DNA from: an uncultured Myxococcales bacterium
Lineage (GTDB): Bacteria; Myxococcota_A; UBA9042
Direction: 5' to 3'
Assembly (NCBI GenBank): GCA_903955385.1
Contig: CAJBNH010000025.1
Coordinates: 1 to 47,778 of the forward strand
Length of the DNA: 47,778 bases
Numbering within the stretch: position 1 is the first letter of the stretch; each line of letters begins with the position of its first letter. Made by a program: the position numbers and the translations under genes. Below are positions 17,085-21,505 of this stretch, one piece after another. The notes beneath the pieces were generated by a model. The model ran no database searches. It was not told the origin of the DNA and saw only the letters and a list, made by a program, of their open reading frames with translations.

Positions 17085-19556
17085 TTAGAGGCCGACGAAC
17101 GCCTTGAGCCAGAGGTACCAGCCGTAGGTCGCGGTGTAGGTCTCCAAGCCCGTCGCATCGCCGACGACGAAGCTGCCGCCCGCAAACGACGCCGTGCCGT
17201 AGGTGGGGCCCTTGGCGATGAAGTCGGCCACGCCGAAGTCGCCGGTGAAGGCGCCGGGGCTGCAGTTCTCGTCGGTGATGCCCTCGCAGGTGTCGTCGAT
17301 GCCGTTGCACAGCTCCGTCAACGCGGGGACAACGGCCCCGAGGCACGCCGTCAGCTTGCCATCGTCCTGACACTTCTGGATGCCGTCCTTGCACTTGCCC
17401 TTGCCGCGCGTCTTGGGGTCGCCGGTGTAGCACGCGGTCTTGACCGTGGTGTCGACGGCGTTGCTGCAGCCCTTGACGGCGTCGCAGCTGTCGATCGTGC
17501 AGGGATTGCCGTCGTCACACGACACCGCCGCGCCGCCGACACAAGTGTACAGGCCGCTTGCGGTTTCGACCCCACACGCATCGCCTTTGGTGCACGCGTT
17601 GGCGTCGTCGCAGGACTTCGGGATGGGCACGAACACGCAAGCGGCGTTCGAGCTGTCGCAGCTGTCCTTGGTGCAGGTCTCGCCGTCGTCGCACACCTTG
17701 GCCTTGCCGACCAAGCAGGTGCCGTTGCTGCACACATCCGCCACGGTGCAGGCGTTGCCGTCGGCGTCGCACGGTGAGGTGCTGGCGACGTACTCACAGC
17801 CCGCCTTGGGGTCGCAGCTGTCGTCGGTGCACGGGTTGACGTCATCGCAGACCTGCACACTGCCGGGCGTACACGCACCGTCCTGACACTTGTCGCCGAC
17901 GGTGCACAGGCTGCCGTCCGCGTCGCACCCCAGCCCTGCGGGCTGCTGCGCAACGACACACAGGCCGGTGACTGCGCTGCAGGCGACGGACTGGCACTGG
18001 GTGTTCAGCGAAACGTCGCACACGACGACCGTCGCCTTGTCGACGTTGCAGACCGACTGCGCCGGCTCGTTCTTGTCGCAGAACAGCGTGCCATTGCAGG
18101 GGTTGCCGTCCTCCTGCGCCACGCAGTCGACGTCGGTGACGCACTTGCAGTTGTTCTGGCCGGACACGCACTCGCCCTGACTGCAGAGGTCACCCTCTGT
18201 GCAGGGGTTGCCGTCGTTGCAAGCCACGCCGCTGGCGCCGGCCTTGTCGTGAACGCAACCCTGTGCAGGCAAACAGGAATCCGCCGTGCACGGGTCCTGG
18301 TCGTCGCATGTCGTCGTCACGTCGATGGCCAGACCCAAGCACACGCCTCCCTTGCACGTCTCGCTGTCGGTGCAGCCGTTGCCGTCGCTGCACACCGTGC
18401 CGTCGATGTTGGCGTGCTTGCAGCCGCTGGCTGGGTCACAGCTGTCGGAGGTGCAGGTGTTCAGGTCGTCGCAGCTGACGTTGATGCCGTTGCACACTGA
18501 AGTGACGGTGTCGGTAGCTGCGCACGAGTCGTCGGCCGTGCACGGGCTGCCGTCGTCACAGGCATAGCCGTCGGGCCGCAGCACAAACTTGCAGTTGCCG
18601 GTCGCCTTGTCACAGCTGCCCGTGATGCAGGACTCGCCCGACTCGCACGCCTTCAGCGCGCCAGCCTGACACGTTCCGCCCTGACACACATCGCCGACGG
18701 TGCAGCCGTCGCCGTCCGCGTCGCACGGAGCGACGTTGTCGGTGACCGTACAGCCGATGGCCAGATCACAGACGTCGTCGGTGCAAGGATTGCCGTCGTC
18801 GCACACAAGCACGGGTCCCGCCTTGCACTTGCCCTCGACACAGGTGTCGTTCGCCGTGCAGGCACTGCCGTCGGCGTCACAGGCCCCCGTACGCGGCGTG
18901 AAGGTGCACTCCCCCGTCGGCTTGCACAGGTCATCGGTGCAGGCACTTCCGTCGTCGCACACGGCGTCGTCGGTCTTGCCGTTGCAGTCGTTGTCCTTGC
19001 CGTCGCAGATCTCCGCGCTGGGGGCCGGGGCGCTGCAGGCCGCAAGACCGCCGCCGGACGGAGCACCAGGCTTGCCGGAGGCGAGACAAGCCCGCGTTCC
19101 CGTACACTTTCCTACCGCTGCCGCACTCGAGACGAAGCAAGTCGTCGCCCACTCGTTGGCCATCGCCTCCGCCGAGCACGCGCACTCGCCTCCTGCCTTG
19201 ACGACGCACTGCTTGACGGCCGCGCCGGTGACATCCTTGCTGTCCGCGCAGACGTAGCCGTCGGTACAATCGGTGTCCGTCGAGCAAGCCGCGCCGCAGA
19301 AGGCGCCGAGGTCCCCGTGGTCGACGCAGCGCGCCTCCCCGGAGGTCGGCCCCTGACAATCTGCATTGGCGTTGCAGGGGTTGCAAAGCCCGGCACGGGA
19401 CGCGACGGTGCCGTCGGCCGTGTCCTGAACGACATCGGTGGCAGGGTCGGTCGCCTCGCTGTCGCCGCAGGACGCCAGACCTGCCGCCGTTCCGGCAAGC
19501 AGGCAGGCCAATCGAACGAACCCGGCAATGCCGAGGCCGGAGTGGGTGGTGTGCAT
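17085..19556 (-). CDS. MopE-type/cysteine-repeat surface lipoprotein
   Basis: 823 residues from ATG 19556; lipobox LASC (GTAAGLASCGDS). After an N-terminal Cys region comes one MopE-type motif (EICDGKDNDCNGKTDD). Then about 16 tandem Cys modules follow with the core CDDGNPCTDDSC or CDADGxxCTxxDxC, alternating with short GxC....C turns. A second MopE-type motif (ELCNGIDDTCEGITDENC) sits near residue 750. The Asp-rich cores suggest calcium-stabilised, disulfide-rich rods; that is an inference. Residues about 770-823 are Cys-free with aromatic strands and may be a separate end domain. It starts 14 bp after the P-domain gene, so the two are probably co-transcribed. Not an obvious enzyme. Confidence 0.85.
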   Translation of the reverse strand: MHTTHSGLGIAGFVRLACLLAGTAAGLASCGDSEATDPATDVVQDTADGTVASRAGLCNPCNANADCQGPTSGEARCVDHGDLGAFCGAACSTDTDCTDGYVCADSKDVTGAAVKQCVVKAGGECACSAEAMANEWATTCFVSSAAAVGKCTGTRACLASGKPGAPSGGGLAACSAPAPSAEICDGKDNDCNGKTDDAVCDDGSACTDDLCKPTGECTFTPRTGACDADGSACTANDTCVEGKCKAGPVLVCDDGNPCTDDVCDLAIGCTVTDNVAPCDADGDGCTVGDVCQGGTCQAGALKACESGESCITGSCDKATGNCKFVLRPDGYACDDGSPCTADDSCAATDTVTSVCNGINVSCDDLNTCTSDSCDPASGCKHANIDGTVCSDGNGCTDSETCKGGVCLGLAIDVTTTCDDQDPCTADSCLPAQGCVHDKAGASGVACNDGNPCTEGDLCSQGECVSGQNNCKCVTDVDCVAQEDGNPCNGTLFCDKNEPAQSVCNVDKATVVVCDVSLNTQCQSVACSAVTGLCVVAQQPAGLGCDADGSLCTVGDKCQDGACTPGSVQVCDDVNPCTDDSCDPKAGCEYVASTSPCDADGNACTVADVCSNGTCLVGKAKVCDDGETCTKDSCDSSNAACVFVPIPKSCDDANACTKGDACGVETASGLYTCVGGAAVSCDDGNPCTIDSCDAVKGCSNAVDTTVKTACYTGDPKTRGKGKCKDGIQKCQDDGKLTACLGAVVPALTELCNGIDDTCEGITDENCSPGAFTGDFGVADFIAKGPTYGTASFAGGSFVVGDATGLETYTATYGWYLWLKAFVGL

Positions 19557-19570
19557 CGCGCTCTCCCGGT

Positions 19571-21505
19571 TTACTGCTCGTACCCGCCCGTCGCCGTGTC
19601 GAGGTCGTCGATGAACTCCAAGCCTTCTGGCAACACCAGGCAATCGTTGTAGAAGCCAAGCGTGACCGAGCGGAATTCACCGGTATCGGGAGAGGAGCCC
19701 GAAACGAAGATGACGGTGCTCGTGCGGCTGGCCGGGATGGTCAAGCTCAAGCTCGCGCTGCAGCCGATGCCGCAGTCGTCGTTCGAGGCCCAGGTGTCCT
19801 CGCCGTTCAAGGTGACGGAGGCGAGCTCGCCCCAGCTGGCGAACGAGGTGTACCAGAAGTAGGGCGTCCAGGTGATGTCGCTGCTCGTGTTGTTGCGGAC
19901 GCGGAACAGGGCGCCGGCCATCTTGCCGTTGGTCGACGAATACGCGCGCCAGGACTCGCTCCATACGTTCGAGTTCCTGCGGGCAAATGCGGTCTTGTTG
20001 AAGAGGGCAGATTGGACTTCCTTGTCTCCCGAGATGCTGGCCGCGTGAGCCGCGCCGTCGGTCCACGAGGACGGATTGACGCCGCCAAACAGCGCGGGAT
20101 CGTCGTTGTGCATCCAGCCCGAGCCCTCCCAGTACGTCGACCAGACCGCCCAGCGATAAGTCGGGTGGGGCAGGCCGGTCACAGTACCCTTGATGTTGAG
20201 TGCGCCGTTGATGGTCAGGCCGCCCGAGACCAGCAGGTCACCGGTGACGCCGACCTTCTTGGTCGAAAGCGTCTTGAGCTTGAGGCCCCAACTCTTCACC
20301 GCGCCGTCGATGTTGTTGTCCAGCAGACCGTCGTCGACCACTCGGATGTACCACTTGCCCTTGGCATTCTTTCCGTGTCAGGTGGTCAGGTCGCCGCTGA
20401 TGGTCTTGGTCTTGTCGGGGAAGCTGGTCTTGATCTCGGTGCCGGACGAGCCCTTGTCGTGCAACACGTACTCGTCGCCGTTCGGGTCGAAGGCCGAGAC
20501 CGTCAGCTTGGTGAGGTCCGAGTTCGTCAGTTCCAGCGTGATCACCAGGGACTGCGCGATGCCGAAGTCGGGCAGAATCAGGGTGTCGGATACGCCGACC
20601 GGGCTGTTGTCGGGGATCGGGATGTCCGACTGGCCGTTGTAGACCTCGTCGAACTGCACGTTGACCAAGCCGTTGGAGACCTCGTCGATGCCGTCGGGCG
20701 GCAGGTACTTCGTGTCGATGTACCCCACGTTCGCCTCGATGCAATCCAGCGTGCCGTCGGCCTTGATCCCTTGGACGACCAGACCCGTGCCGCAGCCGAC
20801 GCCCACTGCGACGCTGACGGGAGCGCCCAGCAGATCCGTGTACTTGCCCGTCGTCGCAACCTTGGACAGGGCCGCAGCCTTGGCATAAACGGTCAGGTCG
20901 GGCACGCCGGTCAGGTCCGCGTACGCCCCTGAGGTGGCCGACTTGGCCAGGTCACCGGCCTTGGCGAACACGGTGAGGTCAGCCGACTTGGCGTAGGCGG
21001 CAAGGTCGGCCGACTTGGCGTAGGGCGCCAGCACGTCGTCCGCCAGATGTGACGTCTTGATGCAGCCGGAGCAGTCCAACGACTCGGCCAGCGAGGCGCG
21101 CATCGAGAACGGCACCGAGGCGATGGCCTGGCGCGAGAACTCGGGGTCCGACTCCACCTTCATCGACAGGAACGGCGTCGCCATGTTGGCGAGCGCATCC
21201 GCCGTCAGCGGCGTCTTGCTGCCAATCGCGTAGCTGTACACGCCGTTCTTCACGGCGATGTCCACGGGACCCTCGGTGTAGACCGGGTTGCCACCCACCG
21301 CGCCGGTGAAGACGCTGAAGGTCACCTTGTACGAACCGTCCGCCACGGGTCCGCCGCCGACGGCGAACAGCCCTCCGTGCACGGTCATGACGGAGGGGAC
21401 GGCGGCAAGGGCAAGCCCGGGCAGCGCGACGAGGACCGCGACAGCCAGACCGGACCACAGGCCGAGTCGGCCGGATCGAACGAGAGAGTTCTCCATGAAA
21501 TTCAT
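19571..21505 (-). CDS. Secreted P-domain (proprotein convertase type) protein interrupted by an in-frame TGA
   Basis: 644 codons from ATG 21505 to the stop at 19571, with TGA at codon 376 (20380-20378). Signal peptide about 1-35 (LAVAVLVALPGLALA). Residues 36-130 resemble surface-fibre head regions (ADGSYKVTFSVF, ASVPFSMRASLAES). Then come repeats of YAKSADL (about 150-215), then a P/Homo B domain (about 305-415). The P domain runs ...ISGDLTT-stop-HGKNAKGKWYIRVVDDG...VKSWGLKL, so the stop takes the aromatic position of its F/W-x-G motif while the frame continues unbroken. The C-terminal third (YRWAVWSTYWEGSGWMHNDD...) is a separate aromatic-rich domain. Either a nonsense mutation (TGG to TGA), readthrough, or a base error. 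The 375-residue upstream product is the minimum. Confidence 0.75.
20378..20380 (-). other. In-frame TGA codon inside the P domain
   Basis: Minus-strand codons read ACC ACC TGA CAC GGA AAG, giving LTT-stop-HGKNAKGKWY in one frame with no shift. The base after TGA is C, known as a leaky context. TGA serves as a normal stop for many other genes here (for example 938, 4117, 10987), so general reassignment to Trp is unlikely. Confidence 0.85.

What the first reader, a model, noticed from the sequence alone, without database searches (positions are those of the whole stretch)
20378..20380. In-frame TGA exactly at the aromatic position of a P domain
The frame runs unbroken from 21505 to 19571 except for one TGA. 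Upstream and downstream parts together make a complete P domain and a further C-terminal domain, and the stop replaces the aromatic residue expected before x-G. A TGG-to-TGA change explains it. The stop is followed by C, a leaky context, so readthrough giving two product lengths is possible. TGA is a normal stop elsewhere in this window.
Basis: partly seen in the sequence, partly recalled or inferred. Interest (0 to 1): 0.7.

Follow-up and report, generated by a model that had tools for sequence, protein, structure and literature searches.

The report
Nonsense mutation in duplicated surface gene
One of about 65 related secreted-protein genes in an uncultured freshwater Myxococcota genome carries a single-letter change that turns an always-present tryptophan codon into a stop, most likely an ordinary recent loss-of-function mutation with no sign that the cell uses it for anything special.

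Summary
The minus-strand frame 21505..19571 is open over 645 codons except for one TGA, codon 376, at 20380..20378. Read through, it gives a complete P domain (PF01483) plus a C-terminal module. All 66 paralogues in the same genome with a residue at that column carry Trp; relatives from other genera carry 45 Trp and 1 Tyr. A motif scan of 52 genomes finds the TGG version 65 times in this genome and in 16 others, the TGA version only here.

The organism has RF2, one tRNA-Trp (CCA, without known UGA-reading mutations) and no UCA tRNA except tRNA-Sec. SelB and tRNA-Sec are present, so selenocysteine was tested: homologues carry Trp, never Cys, and no convincing SECIS follows. Of 59 complete paralogous frames 19 end in TGA, 8 of them TGAC, so the 'leaky' context is ordinary. 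The downstream part is not decayed and has no second stop: the lesion is young, or an error, or partly read through.

Best reading: a recent TGG-to-TGA nonsense mutation in one member of a large redundant family, truncating the P domain. A consensus error cannot be excluded without reads. Programmed readthrough has no positive evidence. Interest is low.

The parts
19571..21505 (-). whole frame: secreted P-domain protein of a large paralogue family, interrupted at codon 376; ends with TAA
   Evidence: translation; paralogues 45-56% identical
21401..21496 (-). probable signal peptide, codons 4-35
   Evidence: read from the sequence: positive start, hydrophobic core, ALA end; no predictor run
21071..21400 (-). 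conserved head, codons 36-145
   Evidence: profile score typical of the family, rank 31 of 69 from the bottom
20816..21034 (-). YAKSADLA-type repeat stretch, about codons 158-230; extra copies of it in some paralogues
20264..20659 (-). P domain (PF01483 at codons 320-410; modelled sandwich codons 283-414), split by the stop
20378..20380 (-). in-frame TGA at a position that is Trp in all paralogues
19574..20179 (-). C-terminal module, codons 443-644, shared with 18 paralogues; not decayed
17085..19556 (-). downstream partner gene, probable lipoprotein with Dicty_CTDC repeats (PF00526); starts 15 bases after the end of the interrupted frame

Best explanation
A recent point mutation (TGG to TGA, codon 376) has inactivated one member of a family of about 65 secreted P-domain proteins in this uncultured freshwater Myxococcota genome. 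Ribosomes stop inside the P domain and make a 375-residue product that lacks the last two strands of the P-domain sandwich and the whole C-terminal module; it is probably misfolded and degraded, and the loss is tolerated because many paralogues remain. Shown: the stop, the invariance of Trp, its uniqueness among relatives, TGA as a normal stop, and no decay downstream. Inferred: that the base is real and not a consensus error, that little full-length protein is made, and that redundancy makes the loss tolerable.
For: 66/66 paralogues have Trp at the column; relatives 45 Trp, 1 Tyr; TGA version of the motif only here among 52 genomes, TGG version 65 times in the own genome and in 16 others. RF2 present; 19 of 59 family frames end in TGA; no suppressor tRNA. 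The stop removes two modelled P-domain strands and the C module. 28 of the 38 one-step transition routes to a stop in this gene are at TGG codons, so a Trp position is the expected place. No second stop downstream and profile score within the family range, as expected for a young lesion. Copies beside the same partner gene in other genera are open with Trp.
Against: A young nonsense mutation, a consensus error and a tolerated readthrough all leave the downstream frame intact, so the lack of decay does not separate them. No reads, transcript or protein data. No genome of the same genus was held.
Confidence: 0.65

Rival explanations
1. Assembly or strain-consensus error: the real codon is TGG in all or most cells of the population.
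For: The genome is a fragmented draft (201 contigs); the copy is intact in every other respect; a single-base difference is enough.
Against: The copy has no close duplicate (nearest 53% identical protein), so it cannot easily be a chimera of paralogues. From general knowledge, single-base consensus errors are rarer than real nonsense mutations in a redundant family.
Confidence: 0.17
2. Functional leaky stop: near-cognate tRNA-Trp reads part of the UGA codons, so that a truncated and a full-length surface protein are both made.
For: Downstream frame intact and not decayed; Trp, the residue expected from near-cognate reading, would restore the family residue; low-level UGA reading by Trp and Cys tRNAs is known in E. 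coli (PMC5373646); C follows the stop.
Against: No other copy or relative has a stop here; TGAC also ends 8 genuine family frames; the tRNA-Trp has five anticodon-stem pairs, A9 and G24, so lacks the changes listed in PMC13092985; the short product would hold an unfinished P domain.
Confidence: 0.12
3. Selenocysteine insertion at the UGA.
For: SelB and tRNA-Sec are present in the genome; a weak hairpin follows the codon.
Against: Homologues have Trp, never Cys; the hairpin is within the range of shuffles (z -0.91 over 41 bases, +1.17 over 64) and similar in energy to the same stretch in paralogues that have TGG; no redox motif at the site. Published searches require Sec/Cys pairs plus a SECIS (PMC1088965).
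Confidence: 0.01
4. Two separate genes: the part after the stop is translated on its own from an internal start.
For: In-frame GTG codons at 20341 and 20299.
Against: Neither has a ribosome-binding sequence upstream; the product would start inside the P domain and lack a signal peptide; no homologue is split there.
Confidence: 0.02

Closest known systems
Recent pseudogene / nonsense allele in a multigene family
   Same: Single in-frame stop at a position that is a sense codon in all relatives; rest of the frame intact; many paralogues remain.
   Different: Nothing found that differs; whether the base is real is untested.
P-domain proteins (PF01483; furin, Kex2, Aeromonas ASP)
   Same: Sequence match over profile positions 4-86 of 86 and structural match of the model to P domains of furin, Kex2 and ASP.
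   Different: No protease domain was found in the paralogues scanned; here the P domain sits between a repeat-bearing head and swapped C-terminal modules.
UGA-to-Trp reading by altered tRNA-Trp (PMC13092985)
   Same: UGA stands where Trp is expected; Myxococcota are among the phyla where 4-bp-stem tRNA-Trp is more prominent.
   Different: One codon only; RF2 present; TGA widely used as a stop; tRNA-Trp here has five stem pairs and neither A9C nor G24A.
Bacterial selenoproteins
   Same: In-frame UGA in a genome that has SelB and tRNA-Sec.
   Different: Homologues have Trp, not Cys; no convincing SECIS; no redox motif.

Membership tests
Nonsense-interrupted gene (pseudogene allele) | Homologues have a sense codon at the stop and continue in frame | tested here: met
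   66/66 paralogues Trp, frames of 578-1118 aa apart from one headless copy
Nonsense-interrupted gene (pseudogene allele) | Stop present in the organism's DNA, not a consensus error | not testable with these tools
   No reads available
Nonsense-interrupted gene (pseudogene allele) | Loss of function of the product | not tested
   Inferred from loss of two P-domain strands and the C module
P domain PF01483 | Profile match above the curated cut-off over the whole domain (stop read as Trp) | tested here: met
   29.2 bits against 21, positions 4-86 of 86
P domain PF01483 | Fold of furin/Kex2 P domain | tested here: met
   Foldseek probability 1.00 to furin, Kex2, ASP chains, over 144-156 columns for most; TM by query length is low because the model is long
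UGA=Trp recoding | Repeated in-frame TGA at Trp positions | tested here: not met
   TGA at this motif only in this copy, 52 genomes; 59 other family frames uninterrupted
[quoted passage not shown]
   One tRNA-Trp, CCA, five-pair stem with G-U on top; only UCA is tRNA-Sec; draft genome 95.6% complete
Selenoprotein | Sec machinery in the genome | tested here: met
   SelB and tRNA-Sec over their cut-offs
Selenoprotein | Cys in homologues at the UGA | tested here: not met
   66 Trp; 45 Trp and 1 Tyr
Selenoprotein | SECIS hairpin after the UGA | tested here: inconclusive
   Weak hairpin, z -0.91 over 41 bases and +1.17 over 64; no dedicated SECIS model was run

The most novel reading that the evidence does not exclude
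The UGA is a selected leaky stop: a small Trp-inserting readthrough fraction gives full-length surface protein while most product is a truncated head, a translational dial on one member of a diversified surface-protein family.
Probability: 0.06. Interest if true: 0.5.

Novelty: new member of a known kind. Interest (0 to 1): 0.15.

Why it matters
As a mutation it matters little: it shows turnover in a large multigene family. It is a useful caution that a stop at a conserved aromatic position is the expected outcome of random nonsense mutation in a Trp-bearing, GC-rich gene (28 of 38 transition routes to a stop are at TGG codons), not by itself a sign of recoding. The wider context, a freshwater Myxococcota genome with about 65 secreted P-domain proteins that share a front part and swap C-terminal modules, deserves its own study.

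Tried and rejected
Selenocysteine: tested because SelB and tRNA-Sec are present; rejected on Trp homologues and lack of a convincing SECIS. UGA reassignment or a suppressor tRNA: the tRNA genes found were typed, none fits. Separate downstream gene: no start with a ribosome-binding site. Recurrence of TGA at the same site: none in 52 genomes of the class. Plasmid search with the C part: no match. First genome-contig scan with the C part alone: nothing. Dating the stop by dN/dS: not possible, nearest copies are about 50% identical. Literature on such a P-domain family in Myxococcota: one unrelated paper. Foldseek rows with TM about 0.1 and rmsd over 20 (for example Cry proteins) are not used; only the P-domain matches are.

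Full report
Observation. The minus-strand frame from 21505 to 19571 is 645 codons long with one internal stop, TGA, at 20380..20378. Read with TGA as Trp, the protein has a complete Pfam P domain at residues 320-410 (29.2 bits, cut-off 21). Neither half passes alone. A model built on 18 sequences puts two further strands of the P domain (383-391, 399-414) and a confidently modelled C-terminal module after the stop. Foldseek places the P domain with those of furin, Kex2 and the Aeromonas protease ASP.

A large paralogue family. The window lies in a 5.30 Mb draft genome of 201 contigs that holds about 65 further copies of the front part, mostly at 45-56% protein identity. Named relatives are mainly lake and groundwater MAGs labelled Myxococcales or Deltaproteobacteria. 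Copies share a signal peptide, head, repeats and P domain and differ in the C-terminal module: 27 of fibrinogen/COLFI type, 19 of the window's type, 9 of a type with a weak tail-collar match in the one member scanned, and several others. For 60 copies, the nearest neighbour by head sequence has the same module type in only half, which points to module swapping.

The residue at the stop. In all 66 paralogues with a residue at that column it is Trp. In relatives from other genera it is Trp in 45 and Tyr in one; five further rows are mis-picked segments outside the P domain. A degenerate DNA motif for this stretch with TGG occurs 65 times in the own genome and in 16 others; with TGA it occurs once, here. 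Copies beside the same downstream partner gene in four other genera, and two on contig C2 of the own genome, are open through the site with Trp.

Is TGA read as an amino acid? The genome has RF2, and 19 of 59 complete paralogous frames end in TGA. The 44 tRNA hits include one tRNA-Trp with anticodon CCA; the only UCA anticodon is on tRNA-Sec. The tRNA-Trp has a five-pair anticodon stem with G27-U43 on top, A9 and G24 (numbering is mine). It therefore lacks the 4-bp stem and the A9C and G24A changes linked to UGA reading in PMC13092985. Because SelB and tRNA-Sec are present, selenocysteine was tested: homologues never have Cys, and the hairpin after the TGA is within the range of shuffles and similar in energy to the same stretch in TGG-bearing paralogues. 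Published selenoprotein searches rest on Sec/Cys pairs plus a SECIS (PMC1088965); the first fails and the second is not convincing.

Is it leaky? Low-level reading of UGA by Trp and Cys tRNAs is known in E. coli (PMC5373646), so a trace of full-length product is likely in any case. The TGAC context is shared by 8 of 19 genuine TGA ends in this same family, so it is not a special signal. A product that ends two strands short of a finished P-domain sandwich is not a credible second isoform (inference).

Age of the lesion. The downstream 268 codons have no second stop. In simulation 25% of copies gain one at 0.01 neutral substitutions per site, 75% at 0.05 and 91% at 0.10. The downstream profile score (338.9 bits) is within the family range (mean 345, sd 65), and the C module ranks high (15 of 18 from the bottom). 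The P-domain remainder ranks low (3 of 44), but so does the part before the stop (7 of 64), so this looks like subfamily divergence and not decay. Codon composition is alike on both sides (GC3 0.91 and 0.88). The stop is young, or an error, or partly read through; the data cannot separate these fully.

Why at a Trp? Of 38 one-step transition routes to a stop codon in this gene, 28 are at its TGG codons. A new stop landing on a conserved aromatic is what random nonsense mutation predicts here.

Verdict. The likely consequence is plain loss of one member of a redundant family. Readthrough as a regulated feature is possible but has no positive evidence. Whether the base is real needs reads.

Noticed in passing
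own genome, about 66 loci, for example L059-L117: About 65 paralogues in one 5.3 Mb genome share signal peptide, head, repeats and P domain but carry different C-terminal modules (fibrinogen/COLFI-like, window type, weakly tail-collar-like and singletons). Head and module types correlate only loosely, which suggests module swapping in a lectin-like or adhesin-like surface repertoire.
   Followed up: partly
L107:1017-2995 (contig C145): A headless copy: a probable lipoprotein gene ends at TGA and the P domain plus C module follow directly in another frame, with no head or signal peptide. It may be a deletion remnant, a silent cassette or an assembly join.
   Followed up: partly
window 17085-19556; C2 of the own genome; G003, G006, G008, G012, G014: A probable lipoprotein with Dictyostelium-type CTDC repeats lies next to copies with the window's C module, in the own genome and in other genera, suggesting a functional pair. 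Long proteins with such repeats number over a hundred matches per genome in this family.
   Followed up: partly
Ends of contigs such as C8, C9, C68, C88, C107, C118, C131, C135, C144, C193: Many contigs end inside copies of this family, so the repeats break the assembly and the true copy number may be higher.
   Followed up: no
L121 (SelB), L123 (tRNA-Sec): The genome has selenocysteine machinery, so some other in-frame TGA codons in it may be real Sec codons; none were looked for.
   Followed up: no
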